In this document: positions 1 to 39,374 of the stretch, one piece after another
How positions within the stretch are numbered: position 1 is the stretch's first letter
Layout: each line of letters starts with the position of its first letter
DNA from: Verrucomicrobiota bacterium
Lineage (GTDB): Bacteria; Verrucomicrobiota; Verrucomicrobiia; Chthoniobacterales; JAFAMB01
Reading direction: 5' to 3'
Assembly: GCA_019237325.1 (NCBI GenBank)
Contig: JAFAHI010000726.1
Coordinates: 1-39,576 of the forward strand
Length of the DNA: 39,576 bases
Translations under genes and position numbers: made by a program
Notes under the pieces: model-generated
Databases searched by the model: none
What the model was told of the DNA's origin: nothing
The model's input: only the letters and a program-made list of their open reading frames with translations

Positions 1-2308
1 CGCCCAAACAGAACGTGGCGCTACGGATACCGCCTCCAGAGAGAGACAAACCAACCGGGTTAGGCGCTGGGGGCAGAGAATCGGCCGGGGACGTCTGCGC
101 TATAGCAGTTGCTACACCGCCAAAGGGCGCGAAGGCAACGTTCCTGCGGGCATGCACCGCCGCATTTTCCAGGTTCCTGAGCGATTCGGGGTAAGTCTCG
201 GTATCGGCCAGGATAGTGTCGGCCGCTTTCTCGCTAATCATAAAAACCGGCGTGACGATGAAATAACCGGGTATCTTGGGAAAAACCGAGGCATCGACGA
301 CTCGCAAATTCCGGACACCGTGCACTTTGAATTTGCTATCGAGCACGGCCTCCTTGTCGTTCAGCTTCCCAACATCTGCCTGCCACGGATCGGGACCGAT
401 GCGGCAGGTACCACAAGCGTGATGACCCCAAGCTTCATTCTGAATCCACTGGTCTAAGTCTGGGCTGCCATCACGCCGATTTGCACCCGGTTGGATCTCG
501 TTCTTGAATAAGAATTTCGAATTAGCGTTAATGTGACGCACGAATTGAACCGCGTTAACCAGTGCGGCCCGGTCTCGTTCCCAGCCCGGCGGACCTTCGG
601 CAAAAGAAGCAAAACAAATCTCGGGGGTTTCAAAAGGCGAGTTAGAAAGCAGGCGGACCCGCCCCCCGTTGTTCCGGGTATACGCTTTAAGAATGATCCA
701 ACTCCAGAGATTCCGCTGCTCTTGGGTTTCATCCGGCTTTTCGTGCAGCAGATCTTTCGACCAGCCCCAGTAATAGCCGGGAAACGACACCGGGGCGCCA
801 AAAATGAAAAGATCCGGCTCCGCTCGTTCGGCATCGACGCCAGAACATTTCAAAACGGCCACGGTTCCCCCGTTGGTCGTATAGAGGCCAGTATGCGACT
901 CCAACCAGTTAGCGCGAGCCGGGTCGTTCGCATCACCGGGAACGAAGCTAACGCCTTTAAGGGTAACAAAATCCTGATCTAACTGGCTGATGACGCTGAC
1001 TTCGTACCGATCCTGCAGGTTTAATCCCACGCCCGGCAAGTTGATCGCCGGATAAGCCGGTTTGCCGTCAATACCGGTCAGCTTCTCGATCTGATGCTCT
1101 TTCAGGTGTCGCTCATCCCCAATGCCGCTGAGCATTAACAATTGGGGAGTGTTGAATGAGCCGCCACAGATGATCACTTCATTCTTGGCAAAATAGCGTT
1201 TTACGGCGGCGGAACCCGATGCCTGGCCTGAGTACAGCGGGCTGGCCTGATAAAGGTGCTGGCCTTCCACAACCTCCACACCTCGAGCGCAGGGAGGGTC
1301 GCCATCCTTCTCCTGGCTGAACAGGATCTTAGTCGCATGAACGCCGGTCACAATAACGAGATTATCAGGATGCGCCTGCTGGGTCTCCAGCAACAGCTCG
1401 CGGACGCCCACTCGGCTGGCTCCATCTGTCCCAACGGGAATGAAGGCGAGTTCTTCCGGTTTATTACGCCGGTTGTTCGGGTCATTCGGATCGAGCGACA
1501 AAACTAACTGCAACTTCAGCGCTCGTCTCAGAGTCGCTAGTATTCCTTTCTTCCCGAGTACGGATTCAACCCCTCCCACCAGCACATCTCGGAAGGTAGT
1601 ATCACCTGCCTCGATCTTGGCGACCAAGTTAGGATCAATAAAACTGGTCGGTTGCCAACCTTTATACCCGTGGTTGCCCGGGTTCCAAACTGCGCGCGGG
1701 TTGACCCACGAGATAATCTGGAGCGCCCAGATATAGACAAGTCCGATGATCCTGCGGAAGAAATTGTCATAGACCTTGAAATAGAGATTCTTTTCCAGCC
1801 GGGTGAAGTAGCCGCGCATGTGTTCGCCCCGCCAGGAATCATCGCCGGTAAGATCGGCGATTTCATCCCAGTCGCGGTCATTCGGCGCGACGATGATCAT
1901 CGCATGATGGGCCGTGCAACCTCCGAGCGCAGAGCATCGCGGATAAAAGATACCGCCTTCACCCTTTCCTCCGCCGTCGCTTTGAGACGGATCATGCTGC
2001 CGCCGATACTTCGAGTCTTTTTTCTGTTGGTCCGTGTTGGCGTAATGTCGGACCGAAAAGCCCCAGCTAATTTCAGGGTGCTCGGTCGCCGCCGCGTGGT
2101 AACCCGGTACCTGCTGGACCTCTGGGGGATCAACGGTGGCTGCAGGTGGATTGCCGGCGGAGATAGCCTGATCGGTTCCTGCTTCGAGCAATAGAACCTT
2201 CCGGCCGGTCTTGGCCAGACGCGCCGCCAAAGGTCCTCCTCCCGCACCTGAGCCCACAATAATGTACTGGAACGGCGTGTTGTCGGGGCTAAGAGCCGCC
2301 TCTAGCAT
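1..2308 (-). CDS. GMC-family FAD oxidoreductase fused to patatin-like phospholipase domain (3' end outside window)
   Basis: An open frame with no stop runs from the ATG at 2308 to the left edge (769 codons). Residues 15-45 are an FAD-binding Rossmann start (IIVGSGAGGGPLAARLA, then VLLLEAG). Residues 629-636 read HHACGTCR, the GMC signature around the catalytic His, followed by the usual C-terminal VVDAS...SEKAAD block. After a roughly 50-residue linker the frame enters GLSLSGGGIRSATF, with the GGGIR oxyanion-hole signature of patatin lipases at residues 758-762; the Ser GxSxG and Asp motifs would lie beyond the edge. GMC enzymes oxidise alcohols, sterols or sugars; patatins hydrolyse acyl lipids. 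No signal peptide is seen; a hydrophobic stretch near residues 185-205 could touch a membrane. It lies 61 bp after the cytochrome gene and is probably cotranscribed. The fusion is read directly; the substrate is unknown. Confidence 0.88.
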   Translation of the reverse strand, partial: MLEAALSPDNTPFQYIIVGSGAGGGPLAARLAKTGRKVLLLEAGTDQAISAGNPPAATVDPPEVQQVPGYHAAATEHPEISWGFSVRHYANTDQQKKDSKYRRQHDPSQSDGGGKGEGGIFYPRCSALGGCTAHHAMIIVAPNDRDWDEIADLTGDDSWRGEHMRGYFTRLEKNLYFKVYDNFFRRIIGLVYIWALQIISWVNPRAVWNPGNHGYKGWQPTSFIDPNLVAKIEAGDTTFRDVLVGGVESVLGKKGILATLRRALKLQLVLSLDPNDPNNRRNKPEELAFIPVGTDGASRVGVRELLLETQQAHPDNLVIVTGVHATKILFSQEKDGDPPCARGVEVVEGQHLYQASPLYSGQASGSAAVKRYFAKNEVIICGGSFNTPQLLMLSGIGDERHLKEHQIEKLTGIDGKPAYPAINLPGVGLNLQDRYEVSVISQLDQDFVTLKGVSFVPGDANDPARANWLESHTGLYTTNGGTVAVLKCSGVDAERAEPDLFIFGAPVSFPGYYWGWSKDLLHEKPDETQEQRNLWSWIILKAYTRNNGGRVRLLSNSPFETPEICFASFAEGPPGWERDRAALVNAVQFVRHINANSKFLFKNEIQPGANRRDGSPDLDQWIQNEAWGHHACGTCRIGPDPWQADVGKLNDKEAVLDSKFKVHGVRNLRVVDASVFPKIPGYFIVTPVFMISEKAADTILADTETYPESLRNLENAAVHARRNVAFAPFGGVATAIAQTSPADSLPPAPNPVGLSLSGGGIRSATFCLG

Positions 2309-2369: not shown

Positions 2370-5300
2370 TTAAAGAGTTTTCAGGAACGCGATCAATTGA
2401 TGCTTTTCTTCGTCTGATAACGCCTCACCAAACCAGTGCCCGCGGTCCATCCAGAAATCGGGACATTTACTGGCTTTCAGCAGCGGCAGACCCGCCTCTT
2501 TTTCGAATGCTTGCAACGCTTCTTTGCCCTTAAGACCCCGAGCGCTTACCAGGAACGATCCGCGCAAGAGCGAGGCGCTAGCATCGATTAACAGGCCTGT
2601 AGGAGCTTCGGGATTCATATTCATGATCAAATTGACTGGGGTTCCTGCCGGGATCGGTCCCACGGACAATGGGCCAAGATCACCATTGACGAAGGCATTC
2701 AATTCGAGGCCGGTGATCAAGCTTAACGCCGCCAGAATGCCGAATACCCAGCGACCGACGATGGGGCGAGCATTGCCAAACCAGATCCAGAGCGCAAACG
2801 CGAGTAGAGCCGCAGGCACAAGCCAGAATGCCCCATAAACTTTATCGAAACGGGTTATCACGAGGATTGCCACCGATAACAGGGCCAGTAAGAGCACGAC
2901 AAAACCGGCCAAGCGCGGCACGCCCAGTAGCGCGAGCACCACAAACAAGACGACTAACAGAAGCCAAAGGTATAAGGAAAGAAATGAGGTCCAGAAATCT
3001 CCAATGATACCGGCAAACAATTCTCTGATGAACTTGGCCGGAATGATGATAGACGTGACTTCGGGAATCCTGTAAATGAAGCCGGGATCTCCCTGGCTTA
3101 ATTCCGCCTGATCCCAACGGAGATCACCCTGGTGATGATTAATGTCGGCAACGCGTTTCGCGTTCCAAAGCAACTTGGTGATACCATCGTTGAACGCGGT
3201 TAACCGTCCTTTCACCGACGGGTCGCCGTTGAAGAGGCCGAGCGAATTATCATGCAGATACGGCGCGGTCGCCCACAAACTCACCAAGGAAGCCGGCCGA
3301 TAATATCCGGGACCACCGCCTGGCGGATAATAAACGTCGTTCATCCCCATGCTATCCGGCAGCACACCGCTGTAAGGATTATAGAAGCGAACTGGACCAA
3401 CTGGCGGCAGATTCTTGTAGTCCTCAGAACTGAAGTTGTCCCACATCTGTCCCCGCATCCCATTGGTACCGACCGCCCGGCCAGAATTCGTGCCGGCTAA
3501 GGTCACCGGTACTCGAATATCGGTGGAGAGATAGTTGTCCTCGATGAATGCGTCAGCGCCATTCTCGGGCTGCCCGGCAAACGCCGTGATTCGCCGAACG
3601 TACTCCTGGTAAGCCGGTGTTTTCTTGAAAAGCTCCCAATCGGCATAAGCCGTGGGCAACGTGAGTTGCGGCGAGGCATCATTGGTCGAAGGGGCATTGC
3701 TAAATTTAGCCCAATCCGACGAAAAGCTTAGTTTGAAGCCATCCGGCTGCTTGCTTGAATGACAGATAGCGCAGTTCCGCAAAAAAACAGCACGGCCGGT
3801 CGCAGCCAACTCTTTGTCCTGTTCGATAATTGCTTTTCCGTCTGGCCCGGCAAAGGCCAGTTTCATCGGTGCGGTGCTGCAGTTCTCCACGGGAACGTCC
3901 GGAGAATTGTTAGTCGGTGAATCTGGCGCCGGAGATGGAGCGGGGTTGGCTTTCTGACTTCTTAAGGTGAAAAACGCTTTGAGATAGGGAACTCGATATT
4001 TCTTCGCGGTTCGCCAGAAGACCGAGTTCGCTTCACAGGTGGCAACGGAGAAAGGCTTCTGCGGTACAAAACCGATGAGCGGATTATGGCATCGTAACCA
4101 TTCCTCGGAGAAGGCTCCGATATTAAGGTAGACGCGAGCCAGCGCGCCAAAGACGCCGATACTATCCGCTCCGTCTAACAGCACTCTGGGAGTATGTCGC
4201 GGATTGGTGGCCGAGTTACTATCTTCGACACTCGGCAACAATAGGTTGGCCGCACCTTGTAATTCCGGCGGATTAGCCGCCGCAAGCTCTAACCGTGCCG
4301 GTACCTGGAAGATGGCATTAATCGTGTTAGCATTATTGATGTGATCCGTGCTAACCAGCGAGGTATCAATCGTCCCGGGTTGCTGGCTGGCCAGGAAATG
4401 ATGGATAAAATTGTTCGCTTTAGTCAGGTTAGCGAAAGCGGTTTTCGGGCTCCAATACTGGTTCCCGATAATAGAAGATAGATTCTCCCACTGAGGATTC
4501 TCTGGATCACTGGGCGGATTCAACGGATGCGGCCCGATATGGCAAAAAGCGCAGGACATGCTCGGCCGGAAAGGCCGGATCAATTGTGGATCTGCATAGA
4601 TGCTGTCTTGCGTATAGTAGGCATCCTTGGGCGCATCGATGACCCGCTCTTTCCAGTAAGCTCTGGCTTTCGCGGCTGCAGGAGTATCCCCGAAGAAATT
4701 CGGGTTCGGGATCAAGCGGAGTCCCATAACCCCACTGGGGTAACCGTAGATATCGTAGTCGACCCCATCTTTCGGCAGTTGCGCGATAACAGATTCGTAC
4801 AAAGCTTGATCGCCGGGTTTGAAGATGTATTTGGGATGCCCCGGTGGCGCTTGAGGCGGCCCTAAGATCGGTTTTCCGTTTTCATCGAAATCTCCGCCAG
4901 GCGGAGACTTGAGCGCGATCTTGTCTCCATCGGCTTGATCCAGATAAAGTCCTAGGATGCGCTTCGCAGGGTCGGTCTGTTTCGTCATCCCCGGCTGGTT
5001 AATAAGTCCAGCGTCCCGGAATCGATGCTCCCGCTGGCGTGAATCCAGCAAAATGAGAAAGTCGATCAACCCATAGCCGCGTTCCTGCAGCCAACCCCAA
5101 AAGGTCTCATTCCCTTCTCCCCAAAGGATCCAAGTATTCTGACCGCGGATGGCGTTTCGTTCTTCATCGCTAATTTTGCCATCGCCGTCGAGATCGTAGT
5201 TGATCGGCTGCAGCTTGCCTCCCGGGCCACTCGCGATTTGGTCGACCTGCCAAAAGAGATTCCGTGGCTCAGCCGGGAAACATTCCTCGATTCGCTTTTC

Positions 5301-5645
5301 TACTGGCGTGCCTTGGGCGGTTCGGCCGCCGTCCGGCTCGTCCTTTGCCCCGGTGGGATCGACCTTGGTAAGAAATTCCTGCCAACCCGGCTTAGAATCC
5401 GGCACATGGCTCGCGGCCGGGTAGTTATTTGGAGAAGGTGATGGGGCCGGGATCGCGATTTCGTTTGGAGTCGCTGACGGAGTCGGAGTTTGTGATTGTG
5501 CGAATGCCAAACCGGTCAGGCAGCTGAGTATCCCGATGAGAACAAAACAGAGCCAATGATTTTCGGGCAATCGACGTATTCGGCTCGCCGGATCGTTCAG
5601 ATTCACAGCCTGCCGGAATTCAGTGATGAATATGAAAATCTTCAT
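2370..5645 (-). CDS. RoxA-like di-heme c-type cytochrome with EF-hand and four-helix membrane insert
   Basis: A 1091-residue exported protein. A hydrophobic signal segment near residues 30-50 ends in LAFAQS and is followed by a Pro/Ser/Thr-rich linker. DLDGDGKISDEE at about 151-162 is a canonical EF-hand loop. Two c-heme motifs are present, CAFCH at 365-369 and CAICH at 625-629. The later segment SLWATAPYLHDNSL and the end KCPDFWMDRGHWFGEALS resemble the large di-heme cytochrome/peroxidase family that includes rubber oxygenase RoxA and MauG relatives. Four strongly hydrophobic helices at roughly 885-990 lie between those two conserved parts, which I do not know from RoxA. The start overlaps the end of the TPR gene by 26 bp, indicating coupling. 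A plausible role is periplasmic oxidation or electron acceptance for the downstream GMC enzyme (inference). Confidence 0.85.
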   Translation of the reverse strand: MKIFIFITEFRQAVNLNDPASRIRRLPENHWLCFVLIGILSCLTGLAFAQSQTPTPSATPNEIAIPAPSPSPNNYPAASHVPDSKPGWQEFLTKVDPTGAKDEPDGGRTAQGTPVEKRIEECFPAEPRNLFWQVDQIASGPGGKLQPINYDLDGDGKISDEERNAIRGQNTWILWGEGNETFWGWLQERGYGLIDFLILLDSRQREHRFRDAGLINQPGMTKQTDPAKRILGLYLDQADGDKIALKSPPGGDFDENGKPILGPPQAPPGHPKYIFKPGDQALYESVIAQLPKDGVDYDIYGYPSGVMGLRLIPNPNFFGDTPAAAKARAYWKERVIDAPKDAYYTQDSIYADPQLIRPFRPSMSCAFCHIGPHPLNPPSDPENPQWENLSSIIGNQYWSPKTAFANLTKANNFIHHFLASQQPGTIDTSLVSTDHINNANTINAIFQVPARLELAAANPPELQGAANLLLPSVEDSNSATNPRHTPRVLLDGADSIGVFGALARVYLNIGAFSEEWLRCHNPLIGFVPQKPFSVATCEANSVFWRTAKKYRVPYLKAFFTLRSQKANPAPSPAPDSPTNNSPDVPVENCSTAPMKLAFAGPDGKAIIEQDKELAATGRAVFLRNCAICHSSKQPDGFKLSFSSDWAKFSNAPSTNDASPQLTLPTAYADWELFKKTPAYQEYVRRITAFAGQPENGADAFIEDNYLSTDIRVPVTLAGTNSGRAVGTNGMRGQMWDNFSSEDYKNLPPVGPVRFYNPYSGVLPDSMGMNDVYYPPGGGPGYYRPASLVSLWATAPYLHDNSLGLFNGDPSVKGRLTAFNDGITKLLWNAKRVADINHHQGDLRWDQAELSQGDPGFIYRIPEVTSIIIPAKFIRELFAGIIGDFWTSFLSLYLWLLLVVLFVVLALLGVPRLAGFVVLLLALLSVAILVITRFDKVYGAFWLVPAALLAFALWIWFGNARPIVGRWVFGILAALSLITGLELNAFVNGDLGPLSVGPIPAGTPVNLIMNMNPEAPTGLLIDASASLLRGSFLVSARGLKGKEALQAFEKEAGLPLLKASKCPDFWMDRGHWFGEALSDEEKHQLIAFLKTL

Positions 5646-6855
5646 AGCGAGGGTTCAATTGGGCAGCGCGCTCGATCAGTTTTTCACCTTCTGCGGCACG
5701 ACCGGCAGCCAGAAAGATGGTCCCCGCTTGATAATATAGACGGGCGTCTTGCATACCGGAGGCTAATGCTAGATCGATCAAATCCACGGCCTCGTCTATC
5801 CGCTTATCTCGATACAACGCCCAGGCCAGGCCGGCCTGGCTGGAAAAATTTGGCCGCAGTCCTACGTCGCGCTGCGCCCAATCCACCCCGGTTTTAGGAT
5901 CATCGCGGACACAGCAATAAAAGTCGGTTAGATGATGGCAGTAGTGAACATCACCACACTCGACCGATTCAAGGTAGTCCTGCAGTGCTGATTCCAACCA
6001 TGGTTCCGCCCGCTCCGGTTGGCCCATCAATAGATAGAGTTCACCGATGGCCTGTTTCAGCTCAGGTTTAGTCGCTCGATCAACGATGCTTTGGAGGAGA
6101 ACAATGGCTGCTTGGTAATTACCTTCAGCGGCTAATAACTCGGCTACATGTTCGTCAACCAGCCAATATCCGGTATAGCTTAGGGCGGCCCGATTGTAAT
6201 GAACCCTCGTTTCCTGATAACGCCCGCGAGAGAAGTCCAACAGGCCTCGTTGCAGCTCGACCCAGGCAAAAGCGCGAGGTTCCTTAGCGGTGATCTCGTC
6301 CTCGGACTCGAGATATAACTGTTCCGCCAGCGCCTCATCTCCCATTTTCCAATGGAAATAGGCCAGGCGGGCAAGACTATCCCAACTCCGGTTCTCCTCG
6401 ACGGCATATTCCAGGCGTACCCTAGCCGCAGTGTATCTTCCCTCTTGGAAGTCAATGTCCGCTTGTAAGACTTCTCCGGAAGCAGAGCCAGCCAAACCGG
6501 GCGCGAGCTGCAGGGCTGCCTTGGCTTGCCCCAGTCGATGGAGCTTTAAGTCCAAGCTCGCTTTCAAAAAACAGATATCCGGACAAGGTCCTATTTTTCG
6601 AATAGCGCTCTCAATGGCGCGCTCCGCATTTTTAAAATCAACTTCCCGGTTGGTTAAGGAAGCCCGGCGAAAAAGTCCCTGAAGGAAACGCGTTGTCTTT
6701 TCGATGTTCAGTGGCCTGGTCTCCGCTTCCAAGGAACTAATCACCTCTTCGATGCGACCTAGTTCGTCAGCGAAATCGTTAACCCCAGGGGACGCGGAAT
6801 CAGTGGCCGGCCGGCCGGTCAACTTAGGCGTTATTGAGGCTAGGTTAGTCGACAT
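5620..6855 (-). CDS. tetratricopeptide-repeat protein
   Basis: A 411-residue, all-helical protein with repeated TPR-type pairs, such as the segments around AALQLAPGLAGSASGEVL, LAYFHWKMGDEALAEQLY, AVELLAAEGNYQAAIVLLQ, LYLLMGQPERAEPWLESAL and LYYQAGTIFLAAGRAAEGEKL. No signal peptide or membrane segment is visible, so it is probably cytoplasmic. TPR proteins act as scaffolds; the partner is unknown, but the position between DUF4331 and the cytochrome, with 70 bp to the former and a 26-bp overlap with the latter, argues for a shared function. TPR genes beside DUF4331 genes occur in other bacteria (recollection, not checked). The ATG at 6855 has only a weak Shine-Dalgarno match. Confidence 0.85.
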   Translation of the reverse strand: MSTNLASITPKLTGRPATDSASPGVNDFADELGRIEEVISSLEAETRPLNIEKTTRFLQGLFRRASLTNREVDFKNAERAIESAIRKIGPCPDICFLKASLDLKLHRLGQAKAALQLAPGLAGSASGEVLQADIDFQEGRYTAARVRLEYAVEENRSWDSLARLAYFHWKMGDEALAEQLYLESEDEITAKEPRAFAWVELQRGLLDFSRGRYQETRVHYNRAALSYTGYWLVDEHVAELLAAEGNYQAAIVLLQSIVDRATKPELKQAIGELYLLMGQPERAEPWLESALQDYLESVECGDVHYCHHLTDFYCCVRDDPKTGVDWAQRDVGLRPNFSSQAGLAWALYRDKRIDEAVDLIDLALASGMQDARLYYQAGTIFLAAGRAAEGEKLIERAAQLNPRYEDFHIHH

Positions 6856-6925: not shown

Positions 6926-8491
6926 CTACCAGGGATCCGCTAAATAGGGAAACTGATTGAGGAACTCTTTGTCGTTCTTCAACGGATTTGGCGGTGTTTT
7001 CGGCACAATCGGCGCTTGATCCCATAACGATTGGTCGCCGAGGATTTCGACATGGTATTTTCGGCCTTTGAACTCGGCGCTCATATCCAGAAACATCGAT
7101 AGAAACCGGGTCGCAACCTGGTCCTCGAGCCGTCTTCCAAAAGGCCAGGTTCCGGTGGTGTCCATGTCAATGGCGCACACATTAGGAACGAAGATCTCGA
7201 AAGGCCGCCGCAAAGGAATATCCAGACCCTTCTTGTTCCATGTGTCGTCCGGCATATTCAGCTGTTGAAACAGCGTTTTCTTGACCCGAGGAAACGCTTC
7301 CAGTGCGGAATCGTAGGTTTTGTGGACGGAAACGGGTGAGTTATCGTGATCGAAAGAAGTAGCTAACCCGAGCGCTGTGATCGACGGACCGAACCCCCAG
7401 CCCAAATGAGCCAGACGCTTAACGAAATGAGGCGCTAACCAGAAGTTGTTGGCGCCGACCTGGCGGCTATCCTCGCGTTCGTTCAACGCCGCATCTGCGA
7501 ACGGCTGGCCGGTCGTATCCACTAACTTGTATTTCTGCAGTTCGTCGTCGAGCTCGAACACGTCCGGTACCACCCAAGGTTTCTCCGTCCATAGCGGGTG
7601 ATCTGGAATCGCTTCCACCTTGTGCGCAGCCTTCAGCACCCAGCTCTCGCCCCACACATTCACAATCCGGTTGCCAGCAGCGTCTTCGGTGAGCAAATCG
7701 ATCGGGATCTCCAGGATGACTGCATTCACGTTCCTGCCCGCCTGCGCATCTTGGCCGCTGTAAACGAATCGATAATTGCCGTCCGCGTCTTTCGCGAACC
7801 GGTTGCCTGTCCACACTAACGGACCCGATGGCAGATCCTTTTTGACGCCCCGGCCGAGTAACGGGTTTTTGGGGTCATAATTAAATAGATCGTTGCCTTC
7901 GAGTTCTAGGAGCGTCTTTGGAATTTTTAGTTCCCGGACCTCTGGCATCGTGTGCGGCACGTGATAGAACTGAGGCGCATAGTTGATCGAGCGGAAGAAC
8001 CCCGGTAAATCGTTGAAAAAGGCGTCGTCGCGACCGCCCACAAATACCTGGAGGCGCCGGCCGCCGGAGGTAGTGACGCTCACGGGCTCGTTCGTGGCCA
8101 CCGTGAACGAGAAATCGGCTTCCCGGAATCTCTTGAACTCGACCTTGGCTTTCTGGGTCTGATCCACGCTGACTCGAATCTCAGACGGATTCAATTCACC
8201 CAGGTATTTATCCTTTACCGCCTCAAAATATTTGGTCAGATCGTCCAAGGAAAAGTCGTTCCAGGCGGGTTGGACGACTCTTGGCCCGGCATGCAGTTGG
8301 ATCCGGTAGAGCATATCGGAATCGAACTCACCAGTCTTAGGCACGGAAGCGAAGGTGAGAGCAATAACGACCTTTTCCCCTCCCTCCGGGTGATCGGAAG
8401 GAAAGCCAAACAAGTCGTATAAGTCGGCGGCGCTAACGTCGACATCTGAAAAGATCGAATTGACGGCGTTGGGATCGTTATGATCAGCCAT
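6926..8491 (-). CDS. DUF4331 domain protein
   Basis: A 521-residue protein beginning MADHNDPNAV and followed by DVSAADLYDLFGFPSD, the typical N-terminus of the DUF4331 family (ADHxDxP...DIxDLYAF). Later stretches such as NVWGESWVLKA, NLFQQ-type loops and the end with HVEILGDQSLW are consistent with a full-length member. The family has no established biochemical role. I chose the ATG at 8491 because AAGAAAGGG lies just upstream; an ATG at 8554 in the same frame would add 21 residues that do not match the family start. No signal peptide is evident. It is first in the four-gene minus-strand run, with a palindromic site about 100 bp upstream. Confidence 0.85.
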   Translation of the reverse strand: MADHNDPNAVNSIFSDVDVSAADLYDLFGFPSDHPEGGEKVVIALTFASVPKTGEFDSDMLYRIQLHAGPRVVQPAWNDFSLDDLTKYFEAVKDKYLGELNPSEIRVSVDQTQKAKVEFKRFREADFSFTVATNEPVSVTTSGGRRLQVFVGGRDDAFFNDLPGFFRSINYAPQFYHVPHTMPEVRELKIPKTLLELEGNDLFNYDPKNPLLGRGVKKDLPSGPLVWTGNRFAKDADGNYRFVYSGQDAQAGRNVNAVILEIPIDLLTEDAAGNRIVNVWGESWVLKAAHKVEAIPDHPLWTEKPWVVPDVFELDDELQKYKLVDTTGQPFADAALNEREDSRQVGANNFWLAPHFVKRLAHLGWGFGPSITALGLATSFDHDNSPVSVHKTYDSALEAFPRVKKTLFQQLNMPDDTWNKKGLDIPLRRPFEIFVPNVCAIDMDTTGTWPFGRRLEDQVATRFLSMFLDMSAEFKGRKYHVEILGDQSLWDQAPIVPKTPPNPLKNDKEFLNQFPYLADPW

Positions 8492-8587
8492 TGAGACCCT
8501 TTCTTGAGTTTTGCGATCGTATTTGGGCCACCATCGGGCGGAAATGAGGCCCACATTCCTGTTCTAACGCAAAACCCTTGCCGCGGA

Positions 8588-8793: not shown

Positions 8794-9978
8794 ATGCCAT
8801 CCCGTATCAAAAAGCACGTCCCTCAACCGACCTGGCTGCAACCAGGAACTGTGAGTCCGCGACCCAGTGCGAAAGTTTCCCAGGCACATACAGGTGTCAG
8901 TCCGCTTAATGCAATCGGCCACCGCAACACCGGCTTCCAACCATTGCCGCGACCGCTCGGTTTACCTCCATATCACTATCCACTAACCGACCATTTCCCG
9001 ACGATCGGAACCAATATTCAGACTGCCGGTAAAATGGTTTTCCATGTCTTAGGAGATTCAGGCGGTGTTCAAGACGGCGAATTCCAGAGCAATGTTGCTG
9101 AACAAATGGTTGCCGAGTTGTCGAACGATGCGACCTCGCCCCAATTTTGCTATCATATCGGTGACGTCGTCTATTTCACAGGATTACATGACGACTACTA
9201 CGCCCAATTCTACGAGCCCTACGCGCATTACACACCGCCGATCTTTTCAATCCCAGGCAATCATGACGGCGAGGTGGACGATCCTAGTATCCAGACTTCT
9301 TTGGACGGATGGGTCGATTATTTCATGCAATCTAACCTGGATGTTGATCCAATATCAAAAGACGCGCCCCGGGTCGGCCTAAGTCTTCCGAATGTTTATT
9401 GGACCTTACTAACTCCGGTCGCCACGTTCGTCGGCCTATATACGAACGTACCGGAAGGCGGTTCGATCGATTCGATACAACAGCAATGGGTGACTAACGA
9501 ATTCGCAACCGCATCCAGAGACTTACCGCTCATCTTTGCGCTGCATCATCCGATCTATTCGTTTGATGTCTTTCACAGCGGCAGTTCAAAAATGGCGGAT
9601 GTGCTGGAGAACGCGATTCGCGACACCGGCCGGGTACCGAACTTGGTGCTGTCCGGGCATGTCCATGATTATCAGCGGATTGAACAGAAAATCGCACCGG
9701 ACAAGCCGACCCCATTTATCGTTTGCGGCAACGGCGGCTACCATAACTTGCATAAGATCCATTCGGAGGCGGGCGATACCGCCCAGGACACGGGAGCGGT
9801 CTTAATGTATGCCCAGGACAAAAAATGGGGTTTCTTGACCCTCACCATCGACGACAAAACGATCAGCGGCGTATCAACCGAGATCGACAGAAGCGGAAAT
9901 ACTTCTCAGGGCGACACTTTCAGTTATCCCACCGCTGCGGTTGTGCTTGACGATCCCAAGAGCGTCCCCACCCTCTAA
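8794..9978 (+). CDS. calcineurin-like metallophosphoesterase
   Basis: 394 residues with the metallophosphoesterase motifs in order: GDSG (Asp88), GDVVYF (Asp124), GNHD (156-158), a His pair at 251-252 (ALHHP) and GHVHDYQR (289-291). This is the two-metal phosphoesterase fold, closest in feel to purple acid phosphatase or 3',5'-cyclic-nucleotide phosphodiesterase relatives. Residues 1-70 are a Pro-rich N-terminal extension without a signal peptide. GAGAGG sits just upstream of the ATG, which supports this start. It is divergent from the DUF4331 operon and carries the same palindromic site in its upstream region. The substrate cannot be inferred. Confidence 0.9.
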   Translation: MPSRIKKHVPQPTWLQPGTVSPRPSAKVSQAHTGVSPLNAIGHRNTGFQPLPRPLGLPPYHYPLTDHFPTIGTNIQTAGKMVFHVLGDSGGVQDGEFQSNVAEQMVAELSNDATSPQFCYHIGDVVYFTGLHDDYYAQFYEPYAHYTPPIFSIPGNHDGEVDDPSIQTSLDGWVDYFMQSNLDVDPISKDAPRVGLSLPNVYWTLLTPVATFVGLYTNVPEGGSIDSIQQQWVTNEFATASRDLPLIFALHHPIYSFDVFHSGSSKMADVLENAIRDTGRVPNLVLSGHVHDYQRIEQKIAPDKPTPFIVCGNGGYHNLHKIHSEAGDTAQDTGAVLMYAQDKKWGFLTLTIDDKTISGVSTEIDRSGNTSQGDTFSYPTAAVVLDDPKSVPTL

Positions 9979-27650: not shown

Positions 27651-28757
27651 TCACTCCACCTCTGGAAAGGCGCGCACATATTGTACGGGTGGCTCCAGCG
27701 GGGCTTTAAGCACTTGGGCGGCGTGGAGAGGCCAGTAAGGATCGCGGAGCATTTGGCGAGCTAACAGTACCATATCGGCTTGGCCGGATCCGATGATCCG
27801 GTTTGCTTGATCCGGATCGGTGATGAGGCCAACGGCTCCGGTGAGTATTCCGGCTTCTCTTCGGATCCGTTCCGCGAAAGGCGCTTGATAAGCAGGGCCA
27901 AGAGCGATCTTCGCATCGGGAACTAAGCCGGCGGAAGAACAATCGATCAAGTCTGCCCCAATACCACGGAGGTGTTCAGCGAGTTTCACTGAATCGTCAA
28001 CTGTCCAACCGTTTTCTTTCCAGTCCGTGGACGAGATCCGGACAAATAATGGATTTTTGTCCGGCAAAATCCCCCGCACGGTCTTGGCCACTTCAAGGAT
28101 GAGCCGGATCCGCTTCTCGAAAGAACCACCGTACTCGTCCGTACGCCGGTTAGATAAGGGTGAATAGAATTCATGCAGCAGATAACCATGGGCGGCATGG
28201 ATCTCGATCACCTCGAAGCCGGCAGCTAACGCTCGGCCTGCAGCTGCGCCGAACTTCTCCACGACTTCACGGATTTCAGCGACGCTTAGTTCTTTAGGAA
28301 CGGGGTCAGTATTACGGAAAGGTACCGCGCTAGGTGCAACCGTCTGCCATCCGCCGTCGGCAGCCGGGATGGCAGCACCACCTTCCCACGGAACCCGGCA
28401 ACTCGCTTTTCTACCCGCATGAGCAAGCTGCATCCCAGGTATCGCACCCTGCTGCTTAATAAATGCGGTGATCTGCGCCAGTTTATCGATCTGTTCGTCC
28501 TTCCAGATGCCGAGATCGGCGGGCGAGATCCGGCCTCGCGCTTCCACCGCGGCGGCCTCAGTGAGAACCAAGGCCGCACCACCAACGGCGCGGCTTCCCA
28601 AGTGAACCAGATGCCAGTCATTTGTAAAGCCGTCCTGGCACGAGTACTCGCACATTGGAGAAACCGCGATCCGGTTCCGAAAATTCACCCCACGAATAGT
28701 TAAGGGTGTGAATAGCCCCGCCTCCGTCGACCCTTTTGCAGTATTCGAATGCTCCAT
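27651..28757 (-). CDS. Old Yellow Enzyme family NADH:flavin oxidoreductase (YqjM-like)
   Basis: 368 residues forming a complete FMN TIM barrel. AVSPMCEYS has the class II Cys (residue 36) that tunes the flavin; QLAHAGRKAS follows; IEIHAAHGYLLHEFYSPLSN contains the substrate-binding His pair and is followed by RTDEYGGS. The end has MVLLARQMLRDPYWP. These enzymes reduce activated C=C bonds using NAD(P)H. No signal peptide. It is divergent from the next gene, with a repeat-rich 5' region, and convergent with the UPF0158-type gene. Confidence 0.92.
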   Translation of the reverse strand: MEHSNTAKGSTEAGLFTPLTIRGVNFRNRIAVSPMCEYSCQDGFTNDWHLVHLGSRAVGGAALVLTEAAAVEARGRISPADLGIWKDEQIDKLAQITAFIKQQGAIPGMQLAHAGRKASCRVPWEGGAAIPAADGGWQTVAPSAVPFRNTDPVPKELSVAEIREVVEKFGAAAGRALAAGFEVIEIHAAHGYLLHEFYSPLSNRRTDEYGGSFEKRIRLILEVAKTVRGILPDKNPLFVRISSTDWKENGWTVDDSVKLAEHLRGIGADLIDCSSAGLVPDAKIALGPAYQAPFAERIRREAGILTGAVGLITDPDQANRIIGSGQADMVLLARQMLRDPYWPLHAAQVLKAPLEPPVQYVRAFPEVE

Positions 28758-36013: not shown

Positions 36014-36274
36014 GTCCCGTAGGGACTAAATGAAGGCGGCCTGGCAATTTATTGCCAGGAATGGGCCAAGAAAAAGCGCGCGTCCCGTAGGGTACGGTGT
36101 GATTCGCGTCCCCGAATTCAACGACTACTCAAACGACGCACGCATGCACCGCGATCTTGTGCTGGTCAATCAGGATGCCAATCCATCATACCGTACCCTA
36201 ACGGGACGCGTCGCGTTGTGTGAATCTCTCAGGCAATAAATTGCCTGGCCACTTTCATTTAGCCCCTACGAGAC
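36014..36274. repeat. GGCAATTTATTGCC-cored foldback element
   Basis: The outer arms are GTCCCGTAGGGACTAAATGA at 36014 and its inverse TCATTTAGCCCCTACGAGAC ending at 36274. Next are the hairpin CCTGGCAATTTATTGCCAGG at 36040-36059 against CAGGCAATAAATTGCCTGGC near 36231, then CGTCCCGTAGGGTACGGT near 36083 with its inverse ACCGTACCCTAACGGGACG near 36190. It carries no transposase. Its right arm supplies the final four codons and stop of the MutS-like gene. Confidence 0.88.
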
Positions 36275-37839
36275 ATCGCCGTTTCGCCCACTCGCCCATT
36301 CGCCGTTTCGTCCCCATTCCGTTCCACCGCATTATCTGGGGCCGACGTTTCACTGAAAATTCGATTATAGAGATCTTCGCCGTAACTGGTGCGTAGAGGC
36401 TCGGCTTGGACCAGCTTAAAGGTACGAGTGCCGTCTTCTTTTCTTTCCGCTCGTAAGAAGGTGACATTGTCCCATTCGCGGCCGTGGAATCCCGAGGTGA
36501 ACGTATATTGGTGGGATACAAAAAAGAGCTTAATTCGTCTCTCCAATAGTGCGCACACGATCTGGCGGGCTATCTCAGAACCTTCGCGCTCGTTGGTGGC
36601 AGCAAATGATTCGTTGAATAACAACAGCGAGTTAGGCGACAAATGATCCACGACCTCGCTCATTCGCTGGAGCTCTTCATCGAATTTACCGCTCCGCATA
36701 GTTTCATCTTCTTCCCGGCGGTAATGCGTCAGTAAGTTCGGACAGATGTTAGCTGTGAATGACGTCGCTCCTACGAACATCCCGGATTGCATCATGAGTT
36801 GCCCGAGACCGATACTGCGCAGAAAAGTCGATTTACCTCCGCCGTTGGCTCCCGTGATAATAACTAGTTCCTTATATTCCGCCTTGAAATCGTTGCCGAT
36901 TACTTTAGGTCGGACGCTGAGCGCCAGACCGACATCGTATAGTTCATTAAAAGTATGCTCGCGTTCGTCGGCTTTAACCGGCACCGGAAAACAAACCGGT
37001 TCTTTCTTTTCGGTCAGGACTTGGTGCAGGTTCAAAGAACCGACATAGAACGCCAGCTCGGTCCGCAGCGTCTTAAAAAAGCTCAGGATATAGTCAGCAG
37101 ACTGACCAAGGACCGTGGCGGTTTGAGTAATCCCTTTTTCGTTGTATTCACCTAAGGCTTTAGCGCCACGTTGATCCCGAGGGTGCAACCGGAAGGTGAA
37201 CCCCGGCTGCTTGTCGAGACCGAACAATCGTTGGAACCGGGTCCGTTTAACAGGCGATTTCTGAAGGATATAATCGGTTCCCCGATTGCCCTCGCCTAAC
37301 TTAGCGGTAATCAAAGTGCCATCGACGAATCTCAAGTCCTTCAGATGGTTCTGCACATCGTGAAGATATTCATCGGTTAGCTCACGCTTAAGGCGGGCAA
37401 ACAAATTACGGAAACCATCAGAATCGAATCCCTGCGTCTGTTTTTCAGCCAAGTGCCGCAGTTTTCTGAGCACATCCACTAGCATGTTGATGAGCTCGAG
37501 TGACCGGTTCAGTAGGCCGGTAGGATATTTACCGAAGAAAGCCCAATACCCTTTGTTTTCGCATTCCACTCCTTTAACCGCAATAGCGTAAAGCTCTCGC
37601 ACGATGGCCGGATGTTTTAGACAATCCTTTAGTACGCTTTGCCGGTACAGAATGGTGTCGACATCCGTAGCTAGACTCGCTAACACGACATCCCGGATCG
37701 CCGAAAACAAAAATTTGTCCCGGTTCGCCATCACCCCGAAAACGGTGTCTAACCCCAGGTCTTGAGCTAGCGCTCGCTCATTCCAGGGTAATGGCGGCGT
37801 CACGAAATTGTTTTCCGGATGCAGAAGACAAACCTTCAT
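36259..37839 (-). CDS. MutS-like ATPase lacking mismatch-recognition domain (second of pair)
   Basis: 526 residues. ITGANGGGKSTFLRSIG with Walker A at 330-337, DEELQRMSEVVDHL, LLFNESFAATNEREG (Walker B Glu410) and FFVSHQYTF are MutS ABC-type ATPase motifs; the first ~300 residues are helical, like the MutS core/lever. The N-terminal mismatch-binding domain with its Phe-x-Glu is absent, so it is not canonical MutS. The start overlaps the partner gene (ATGA at 37836-37839). The last ~20 residues (RNGDETANGRVGETAMSRRG) are encoded by repeats. Cytoplasmic; role unknown. Confidence 0.87.
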   Translation of the reverse strand: MKVCLLHPENNFVTPPLPWNERALAQDLGLDTVFGVMANRDKFLFSAIRDVVLASLATDVDTILYRQSVLKDCLKHPAIVRELYAIAVKGVECENKGYWAFFGKYPTGLLNRSLELINMLVDVLRKLRHLAEKQTQGFDSDGFRNLFARLKRELTDEYLHDVQNHLKDLRFVDGTLITAKLGEGNRGTDYILQKSPVKRTRFQRLFGLDKQPGFTFRLHPRDQRGAKALGEYNEKGITQTATVLGQSADYILSFFKTLRTELAFYVGSLNLHQVLTEKKEPVCFPVPVKADEREHTFNELYDVGLALSVRPKVIGNDFKAEYKELVIITGANGGGKSTFLRSIGLGQLMMQSGMFVGATSFTANICPNLLTHYRREEDETMRSGKFDEELQRMSEVVDHLSPNSLLLFNESFAATNEREGSEIARQIVCALLERRIKLFFVSHQYTFTSGFHGREWDNVTFLRAERKEDGTRTFKLVQAEPLRTSYGEDLYNRIFSETSAPDNAVERNGDETANGRVGETAMSRRG

Positions 37840-39374
37840 AAACTCAGGCGTTCCTTTATTCGATCGTAGGTGAGCCGATACTTTTCGGCGATGGTCAGCG
37901 CGTAGGCAACCCCTTCCGCCGGCTTGCGAAACACTTTAAACGTCCGTACCGAGGGATTGTCCGGAACCACCGTACTGACCATGCTCACCACCGTCTTCGA
38001 GTACGACGCCAGTTCGTCGACAAAAGTTACCCAAACACACAATGCATCGAGCTCGATGATCCTTTCCATCACGCGCTTGCTGAGAAACAATGCATCCTGC
38101 AACGCGGTCGAACTAAAAATCTCGTTCAGAATGATGATGCTGTTGGGCGTGGCCTTTTCCAAAATCTCATGTATCCGGACCACATCGTCCTGGAGCTTGC
38201 CCTGCAGGTTCGTCATGTACTCGTCCCGTTCATAGTGAGTCATAATGTAGTCGAACAAATGAATCTGGGCCGCCCTTCCGGGCACGAGAAAACCCATACC
38301 GGCTAGATACTGCGCCTGACCAAATTGACGGGAAAATGTGGTCTTACCGCCTTGGTTGGGACCCGTCACCACAAAAATGCGCTCGGGGTCTTTGAAATAA
38401 AAATCGTTACAAACGACGGCGTGCCCTTCGGTCACCAGTCTATAGGCTAGCGCAATGTCGAACCCGCCATCGCAATAAATCTCTTTCGAACCAGTTGTGA
38501 TCTTCGGGTAACAGAACCTCAACCCGGTGCGCCTGAAATTCTCGATGTAGTCGAGATAGGAGATATAAAACTGGCTCTCGCGCTCAAAAATCTGGATCGG
38601 CTTTTCTTCGTAGTTGGCGTATCGCGCACAATATTCGGTGAGACTGGCGAAGATCTCGGGATACAGCTGAGTAACGAACTCGAGCACTTTAGCCTCGACG
38701 ACGTTGAGGTGAGGCAAGCTCGGGAACTTATACTCGTATGCCTTCGGGGCGCCTTGTTTAAATCTTTCGAAGGTGCGTTCAATTTCTGCGCTATAATTCA
38801 GGCCCTCCTTATACTTAGTCACTTTGAAAGTGCCGGAACCCAGGATGAGCGTAGAATAGCGAATCGAGTCTAAATCGGTTTGCAGCTTTCTGGTTTCCGA
38901 CTCTAGCTTTCTAAACGAGCTCGACCCAACGTAAGCCGACAAGTAATCCCGGAACGCCGATAAGGCAGCCGAATTGAGTTTGGCTAACGCGAGATCGTGG
39001 GCCAGCTGATCGGTGCCGGCGCAAAAAACACCGACCGCGTCCAAAAACCATCGTTGTTTCTGTCTATCGTCGGTAACCTTGCCCGCCTGCGTCAGATATT
39101 CGCGCATTTTGGTCATCTCTTGCGCGAACGATTTCAGATTCTTGAGAAGCTCCTCGTCCTCCAGATCTCGAAGTACTTCGTGCCGGTAAGCAATGACGTC
39201 AGTGTCGGGCACGCAAGTGTAGAAAAGCGGTTTTAGATTATAGATCTCCTTTCCTGCGGTGATCGCTTCGATCACCTGGTGGAGGTTCATGTCTTTAAAA
39301 AACTCCGGAGCTTCAGCGGCCTCTCTCGCCTGCGGATCTTCCGCTCCGGGAAACAAAATGCTGTAAAACGTCAT
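37836..39374 (-). CDS. MutS-like ATPase lacking mismatch-recognition domain (first of pair)
   Basis: 512 residues. VTGPNQGGKTTFSRQFG with Walker A at 338-345 (Gln replaces the usual Met of MutS), RDEYMTNLQGKLQDDVVRIH, SIIILNEIFSSTALQDA (Walker B Glu418) and CVWVTFVDELASYS are the MutS ATPase motifs. Helical N-terminal half; no mismatch-binding domain. The four-base overlap with the next gene indicates coupled translation and suggests a heterodimer, since the two differ throughout. The ATG at 39374 has only a weak GAGA ribosome site. Confidence 0.87.
   Translation of the reverse strand: MTFYSILFPGAEDPQAREAAEAPEFFKDMNLHQVIEAITAGKEIYNLKPLFYTCVPDTDVIAYRHEVLRDLEDEELLKNLKSFAQEMTKMREYLTQAGKVTDDRQKQRWFLDAVGVFCAGTDQLAHDLALAKLNSAALSAFRDYLSAYVGSSSFRKLESETRKLQTDLDSIRYSTLILGSGTFKVTKYKEGLNYSAEIERTFERFKQGAPKAYEYKFPSLPHLNVVEAKVLEFVTQLYPEIFASLTEYCARYANYEEKPIQIFERESQFYISYLDYIENFRRTGLRFCYPKITTGSKEIYCDGGFDIALAYRLVTEGHAVVCNDFYFKDPERIFVVTGPNQGGKTTFSRQFGQAQYLAGMGFLVPGRAAQIHLFDYIMTHYERDEYMTNLQGKLQDDVVRIHEILEKATPNSIIILNEIFSSTALQDALFLSKRVMERIIELDALCVWVTFVDELASYSKTVVSMVSTVVPDNPSVRTFKVFRKPAEGVAYALTIAEKYRLTYDRIKERLSL

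What the first reader, a model, noticed from the sequence alone, without database searches (positions are those of the whole stretch)
1..2308. GMC oxidoreductase fused to a patatin lipase domain
One uninterrupted frame joins a complete GMC flavoprotein (FAD loop, HHACGTCR) to a patatin start with its GGGIR oxyanion-hole motif. Lipid hydrolysis coupled to oxidation of the released alcohol or acyl product in one polypeptide would be unusual. The patatin Ser/Asp lie outside the window, so activity is not shown.
Basis: partly seen in the sequence, partly recalled or inferred. Interest (0 to 1): 0.8.

Follow-up and report, generated by a model that had tools for sequence, protein, structure and literature searches.

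The report
Flavoenzyme fused to membrane phospholipase
Soil bacteria of several phyla carry one protein that joins a flavin oxidoreductase to a membrane-embedded phospholipase, nearly always right behind a haem protein of a kind related to fatty-acid oxygenases, which points to a little-studied bacterial route for cutting and oxidising membrane lipids.

Summary
The window is a whole contig (G000:C408) of a Verrucomicrobiota genome, and its end cuts the gene 20 residues into the patatin domain. Another contig of the same assembly (C439) continues the frame through the catalytic Ser and Asp. It overlaps by 235 bases at about 86% identity, so it is a sibling allele and not an exact join. Neither 'would refute' condition is met.

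Complete single-frame fusions (about 1540-1730 aa) occur in Verrucomicrobiota, Planctomycetota and Pseudomonadota, including isolates. The phospholipase dyad and oxyanion motif are conserved, with about 8 membrane helices between Ser and Asp. A di-haem (two CxxCH) RoxA-like cytochrome gene lies directly upstream of 36 of 37 fusions.

Unfused relatives of this GMC sit beside phospholipases of several kinds and beside other haem oxygenases: alpha-dioxygenase in Nostoc and Actinomycetota, RoxA/fatty-acid-dioxygenase-like pairs in Chromatiaceae. None of 13 other GMC paralogues does.

Best reading: a membrane lipid-oxidation (oxylipin-like) module in which the phospholipase frees acyl chains, the haem protein oxygenates them and the flavoprotein oxidises the product. 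The chemistry is inferred. One caution: the second GMC catalytic His/Asn is an invariant Phe. I found no paper describing the fusion.

The parts
2..2308 (-). GMC oxidoreductase-phospholipase fusion gene, cut by the contig end (769 aa visible of about 1550-1600)
   Evidence: full-length homologue L024 1595 aa, 63-64% identical
203..2308 (-). GMC flavoprotein domain; FAD motif GSGAGG at 2237-2254, HHACGTC at 404-424; AlphaFold2 model pLDDT 93.2, choline-oxidase fold
260..262 (-). codon of Phe683, in the place of the second GMC catalytic His/Asn; Phe in 72/72 homologues
2..61 (-). start of the phospholipase (patatin/cPLA2-like) domain with the GGGIR oxyanion-hole motif at 23-37; the rest lies beyond the contig (allele on G000:C439, L004:175-2580)
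2370..5645 (-). Di-haem c-type cytochrome (CxxCH codons at 4539-4553 and 3759-3773), N-terminal hydrophobic signal/anchor, 3-4 C-terminal membrane helices; remote RoxA/di-haem peroxidase relative; 55 nt upstream of the fusion gene
5620..6855 (-). TPR-repeat protein, next gene upstream; linked to the same set in 8 loci
6926..8554 (-). DUF4331 protein, first gene of the same-strand run; linked to the same set in 6 loci

Best explanation
This is a bifunctional membrane enzyme of a lipid-oxidation (oxylipin-like) module. The C-terminal cPLA2/patatin-like phospholipase has its Ser-Asp dyad split around about eight membrane helices and releases acyl chains from membrane glycerolipids. The di-haem RoxA-like cytochrome made by the gene directly upstream oxygenates the (unsaturated) chains. 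The N-terminal GMC flavoprotein oxidises the resulting hydroxy- or oxo-lipid, or its cleavage product. Fusion keeps hydrolysis and flavin chemistry together at the membrane. Shown here: the fusion, both sets of motifs, the membrane insert, the tight gene order and its recurrence across phyla. Inferred: substrate, reaction order, electron acceptor and physiological role.
For: Single-frame fusions in 37 of 72 GMC rows, with L024 the window's sister. Phospholipase SGGGxR 51/51, Ser 51/51, DGG Asp 50/51. Confident AlphaFold2 models, GMC fold by Foldseek; cPLA2 is the best, weak, match of the phospholipase. Di-haem cytochrome gene upstream of 36/37 fusions, usually within about 60 nt or overlapping. 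Split relatives keep the same genes side by side, and in L028/L029 the GMC and phospholipase genes overlap. Unfused GMC relatives sit with phospholipases of other types and with fatty-acid alpha-dioxygenase-like haem proteins (E 1e-125 to 1e-126 to 4kvj) in Nostoc and Actinomycetota, or with tandem RoxA-like haem proteins and an Oxidored_FMN enzyme in Chromatiaceae. Of 72 rows, 59 have a phospholipase in the locus, 68 a haem oxygenase-type protein and 57 both; 13 control GMC paralogues have none. RoxA-type di-haem proteins PA2077/PA2078 of P. aeruginosa are proven oleate 10S-dioxygenase and diol synthase (PMC4496055).
Against: The second catalytic His/Asn of GMC oxidases is Phe in 72/72, so ordinary alcohol oxidation is uncertain. 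The cytochrome has an N-terminal signal/anchor while the fusion protein starts directly at the FAD domain, so the two active sites may lie on opposite sides of the membrane (inference). The cytochrome is only remotely related to RoxA (below Pfam and NCBIfam cut-offs; 44 columns by hhalign). The control set is small and comes from one bacterial order. No substrate is known.
Confidence: 0.5

Rival explanations
1. The GMC domain is an oxidase whose H2O2 feeds the neighbouring di-haem peroxidase-type cytochrome; the phospholipase domain remodels or repairs oxidised membrane lipid. The module deals with peroxidised lipids rather than making oxylipins.
For: The cytochrome weakly matches NCBIfam di-haem cytochrome c peroxidase; a DyP-type peroxidase gene lies near the one fusion without the cytochrome (L044); phospholipases can excise damaged acyl chains (general knowledge).
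Against: Alpha-dioxygenase-type partners in Nostoc and Actinomycetota use O2 and fatty acid rather than H2O2 as substrate (general knowledge; identity). An H2O2 source on the cytosolic side would be an odd supply for a periplasmic peroxidase.
Confidence: 0.2
2. The GMC domain no longer oxidises alcohols: it is a non-redox or lyase/isomerase-type flavoprotein that processes lipid hydroperoxides made by the haem partner.
For: Invariant Phe at the second catalytic position, while one His is kept (72/72). GMC relatives with non-oxidase chemistry exist (hydroxynitrile lyase and fatty acid photodecarboxylase are among the structural relatives). Partners make hydroperoxides.
Against: It is not a photodecarboxylase: the FAP positions for Cys432 and Arg451 are small or hydrophobic here (residue numbers from general knowledge). 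No positive evidence for a lyase.
Confidence: 0.2
3. The phospholipase is an effector (anti-phage or inter-bacterial) and the GMC part is a sensor.
For: Patatin-type phospholipases are effectors in CBASS-type defence (general knowledge; AbCapV is a very weak Foldseek match).
Against: No PADLOC model matches any of the proteins. The neighbours are a cytochrome, TPR and DUF4331 proteins, with no nucleotide-cyclase partner among the genes identified. The long multi-helix phospholipase does not resemble those effectors.
Confidence: 0.03
4. The joined frame is an assembly artefact.
For: The window ends at a contig end of a fragmented 78%-complete genome.
Against: Independent isolates and MAGs of three phyla carry the same fusion at the same junction, including complete Rhizobium and Mesorhizobium plasmids.
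Confidence: 0.01

Closest known systems
GMC oxidoreductases (choline oxidase 2jbv, aryl-alcohol oxidase, fatty acid photodecarboxylase)
   Same: Fold, FAD motif, HxxGTC active-site His, Pfam N and C domains above cut-off
   Different: Second catalytic His/Asn is an invariant Phe; extra insertions; C-terminal phospholipase; FAP's Cys and Arg absent
Patatin / cytosolic PLA2 family
   Same: SGGGxR oxyanion motif, Ser nucleophile in (S/T)xSxG context, DGG catalytic Asp; Pfam Patatin above cut-off in L024
   Different: About 8 membrane helices between Ser and Asp; some members, among them the C439 allele, fall below Pfam detection; only a weak Foldseek match to cPLA2
RoxA rubber oxygenase and P. 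aeruginosa PA2077/PA2078 fatty-acid di-haem dioxygenases (FadCcp)
   Same: The upstream cytochrome has two CxxCH motifs about 240-270 residues apart (245 and 235 in PA2077/PA2078) and a weak RoxA-like_Cyt-c match in homologues
   Different: Larger (about 1000-1200 aa when beside a fusion), C-terminal membrane helices, similarity below curated cut-offs
Nostoc linoleate 10S-dioxygenase with catalase-related hydroperoxide lyase (Brash 2014, cited in PMC9579011)
   Same: Nostoc relatives of this GMC lie next to a fatty-acid haem dioxygenase, a roughly 300-360-aa gene and a phospholipase
   Different: The Nostoc haem protein here is closest to alpha-dioxygenase and is not a di-haem cytochrome; nothing is fused; identity with the characterised pair was not tested

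Membership tests
GMC oxidoreductase superfamily | FAD-binding GxGxxG and both GMC Pfam domains above cut-off | tested here: met
GMC oxidoreductase superfamily | GMC fold | tested here: met
   AlphaFold2 pLDDT 93.2; Foldseek 2jbv E 1.6e-41, TM (target) 0.86
GMC alcohol oxidases/dehydrogenases | Second active-site base (His or Asn) near the C-terminus | tested here: not met
   Phe in 72/72, aligned with Asn of 9lq0 and His of 8rpf
Fatty acid photodecarboxylase | Cys432 and Arg451 equivalents | tested here: not met
Patatin/cPLA2-like phospholipase | GGGxR oxyanion motif | tested here: met
   window 23-37; 51/51 homologues
Patatin/cPLA2-like phospholipase | Ser-Asp dyad (xxSxG and DGG) | tested here: met
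   Outside the window; present in the C439 allele and in 51/51 and 50/51 homologues
Patatin/cPLA2-like phospholipase | Lipid hydrolysis | not testable with these tools
   needs an assay
RoxA / FadCcp di-haem oxygenases (upstream gene) | Two CxxCH haem motifs | tested here: met
   window and nearly every homologue with a complete sequence
RoxA / FadCcp di-haem oxygenases (upstream gene) | Scores above family cut-offs | tested here: not met
   RoxA-like_Cyt-c at most 21.8 against 26.7 in homologues and not reported for the window's own protein; NF040606 33 against 150
P. aeruginosa-type oleate diol synthase operon | Tandem FadCcp genes | tested here: not met
   None beside the window gene; tandem RoxA-like pairs beside GMC in Chromatiaceae (L073, L076, L087, L099) and in L069

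The most novel reading that the evidence does not exclude
An unrecognised bacterial oxylipin pathway, spread over at least six phyla, in which one GMC flavoprotein subfamily works with interchangeable phospholipases and interchangeable fatty-acid haem oxygenases (di-haem RoxA-like, alpha-dioxygenase-like). In Verrucomicrobiota, Planctomycetota and Pseudomonadota the phospholipase and the flavoprotein have become one membrane enzyme with a non-canonical GMC active site.
Probability: 0.4. Interest if true: 0.82.

Novelty: new variant of a known kind. Interest (0 to 1): 0.62.

Why it matters
Bacterial oxylipins are known from few organisms (P. aeruginosa signalling, cyanobacteria), and how free fatty acid is supplied and what happens after oxygenation is mostly open. 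A fused phospholipase-flavoenzyme behind a haem oxygenase gene would tie release and later oxidation to one protein. It occurs in cultured Paraburkholderia, Rhizobium and Verrucomicrobium, so the idea can be tested directly. It would also give a function to an unassigned GMC subfamily, to membrane cPLA2-like proteins and to a large family of di-haem cytochromes; one plasmid copy is now annotated simply 'GMC oxidoreductase' with a 'hypothetical protein' before it.

Tried and rejected
The exact contig join failed: C439 overlaps by 235 bases at about 86% identity, so it was used only as an allele. The first genome-contig scan with the window protein found nothing; the alignment-based scan found 430 relatives, of which 80 were kept. 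A fatty acid photodecarboxylase reading (top sequence hits) was rejected on key residues. A defence reading was rejected. Literature searches for GMC plus patatin, RoxA plus GMC, and alpha-dioxygenase plus patatin plus GMC found no description of the fusion or the module; the library lacks most subscription papers. The Nostoc 2014 paper was not held. Direct profile comparison of the cytochrome with RoxA-like proteins gave only the haem region. The 304-aa Nostoc partner had no Pfam, NCBIfam or PDB match, so I do not claim that it is the catalase-related lyase.

Full report
OBSERVATION. The minus-strand frame from 2308 to the window edge encodes 769 visible residues. Pfam calls GMC_oxred_N and GMC_oxred_C well above their cut-offs. 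The last 20 residues, NPVGLSLSGGGIRSATFCLG, are the start of a patatin-type domain. The window is the complete contig C408 of a 6.05-Mb, 78%-complete assembly.

BEYOND THE EDGE. In the same assembly, contig C439 starts inside the same gene. Its first 235 bases match the end of C408 at about 86% DNA identity, and its frame stays open for 860 codons. It contains SSVSGGGY, many hydrophobic helices and SDGGHFD, followed by a gene that clusters with the DUF4331-like genes found downstream of other fusions. This is most simply a sibling allele of the same locus split by the assembler.

RELATED SEQUENCES. Among 57 related genomes, complete single-frame fusions occur in G006 (1595 aa, 64% identical over the window part), G055, G035 and G037, with a contig-end copy in G010. 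In G003 and G007 the GMC and phospholipase are two overlapping genes. A scan of GTDB genomes with the alignment gave 80 loci. Of 72 GMC rows, 37 are fused, from Verrucomicrobiota, Planctomycetota and Pseudomonadota (Burkholderiales, Rhizobiaceae, Neisseriaceae, Pseudomonas). The tree puts the fusions in one 28-row group plus 9 rows of Planctomycetota/Verrucomicrobiota; split genes lie beside or among them, so splitting or repeated fusion has happened. Even so the fusion is rare: 2 of 289 Verrucomicrobiota genomes sampled at a strict cut-off match over both parts, one of them the window's own genome.

ANATOMY. GMC: GxGxxG and HHxxxT invariant or nearly so; AlphaFold2 pLDDT 93.2; Foldseek best match choline oxidase, E 1.6e-41. 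At the position that holds Asn or His in 9lq0 and 8rpf, all 72 sequences have Phe. FAP's Cys and Arg are also absent. Phospholipase: SGGGxR and Ser 51/51, DGG Asp 50/51, about eight predicted membrane helices between Ser and Asp; AlphaFold2 pLDDT 90.9; the best Foldseek match is cPLA2 (E 0.0026, probability 1.0, low TM), and the profile weakly matches bacterial patatin-type phospholipases. The fusion protein has no evident signal peptide (inspection).

SURROUNDINGS. The same-strand run in the window is DUF4331 (6926-8554), TPR (5620-6855), di-haem cytochrome (2370-5645), then the fusion. The cytochrome gene lies directly upstream of 36 of 37 fusions, mostly within about 60 nt or overlapping. 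It has two CxxCH motifs, an N-terminal hydrophobic segment and C-terminal membrane helices. Its relation to RoxA is remote: sub-threshold Pfam and NCBIfam matches in homologues, PDB 4b2n (identified as RoxA in PMC4496055) at E 0.001, and a haem-region-only profile match to clear RoxA relatives. RoxA-type proteins include the characterised oleate 10S-dioxygenase and diol synthase of P. aeruginosa (PMC4496055).

THE STRONGEST FUNCTIONAL HINT. Unfused members of the same GMC subfamily keep the same kind of company with different genes. In Nostoc it is an alpha-dioxygenase-like haem protein, a roughly 300-360-aa gene, GMC, and a different patatin. In Acidimicrobiaceae, Solirubrobacteraceae and Streptomyces an alpha-dioxygenase-like gene follows or overlaps GMC, with a canonical patatin in two of the three. 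In Chromatiaceae it is the cytochrome, GMC, an Oxidored_FMN enzyme in some, and a tandem pair of RoxA-like proteins. In Acidobacteriota and Gemmatimonadota it is the cytochrome, GMC and a separate phospholipase. In numbers: 59 of 72 loci have a phospholipase (60 with the window), 68 have a haem oxygenase-type protein and 57 have both. Thirteen other GMC paralogues from the window's order, searched with the same profiles, have none. Because partners of different families recur, the link is with lipid release and oxygenation, not with one particular neighbour gene.

MECHANISM. I commit to a membrane lipid-oxidation module: the phospholipase frees acyl chains, the haem protein oxygenates them, and the flavoprotein oxidises the product (confidence 0.5). 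The weak points are the missing second catalytic residue, the uncertain side of the membrane and the remote kinship of the cytochrome. Rivals are peroxide supply or lipid repair (0.2) and a non-redox hydroperoxide-processing flavoenzyme (0.2).

NOVELTY. Both domains are known families and automatic annotation already sees the GMC part (a plasmid copy is named 'GMC oxidoreductase'). I found no paper describing the fusion or the module, within the limits of an open-access library. I rate it a new variant of a known kind.

Noticed in passing
window 8794-9978 (+): Calcineurin-like metallophosphatase gene diverging from the DUF4331-TPR-cytochrome-GMC run; not found by homology in the other loci.
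   Followed up: partly
window 36259-39374 (-): Two adjacent genes, each with only a MutS domain V (526 and 512 aa), overlapping by a few bases; stand-alone tandem MutS_V proteins.
   Followed up: partly
window 27651-28757 (-): Oxidored_FMN (old yellow enzyme family) gene; a distant relative lies next to the GMC gene in Chromatiaceae loci L073 and L076. May be coincidence here.
   Followed up: partly
L044:3967-5652 (-): The only fusion locus with upstream flank but no di-haem cytochrome has a DyP-type peroxidase gene nearby on the other strand.
   Followed up: partly
L025:13276-16059 and similar genes just downstream of many fusions: Family of DUF4331-like secreted proteins, some fused to a second domain, directly downstream of the fusion gene; function unknown.
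   Followed up: partly
G000 C408 and C439: The two contigs end inside the same gene with an overlap at about 86% identity, which suggests two strains binned together in this assembly.
   Followed up: partly
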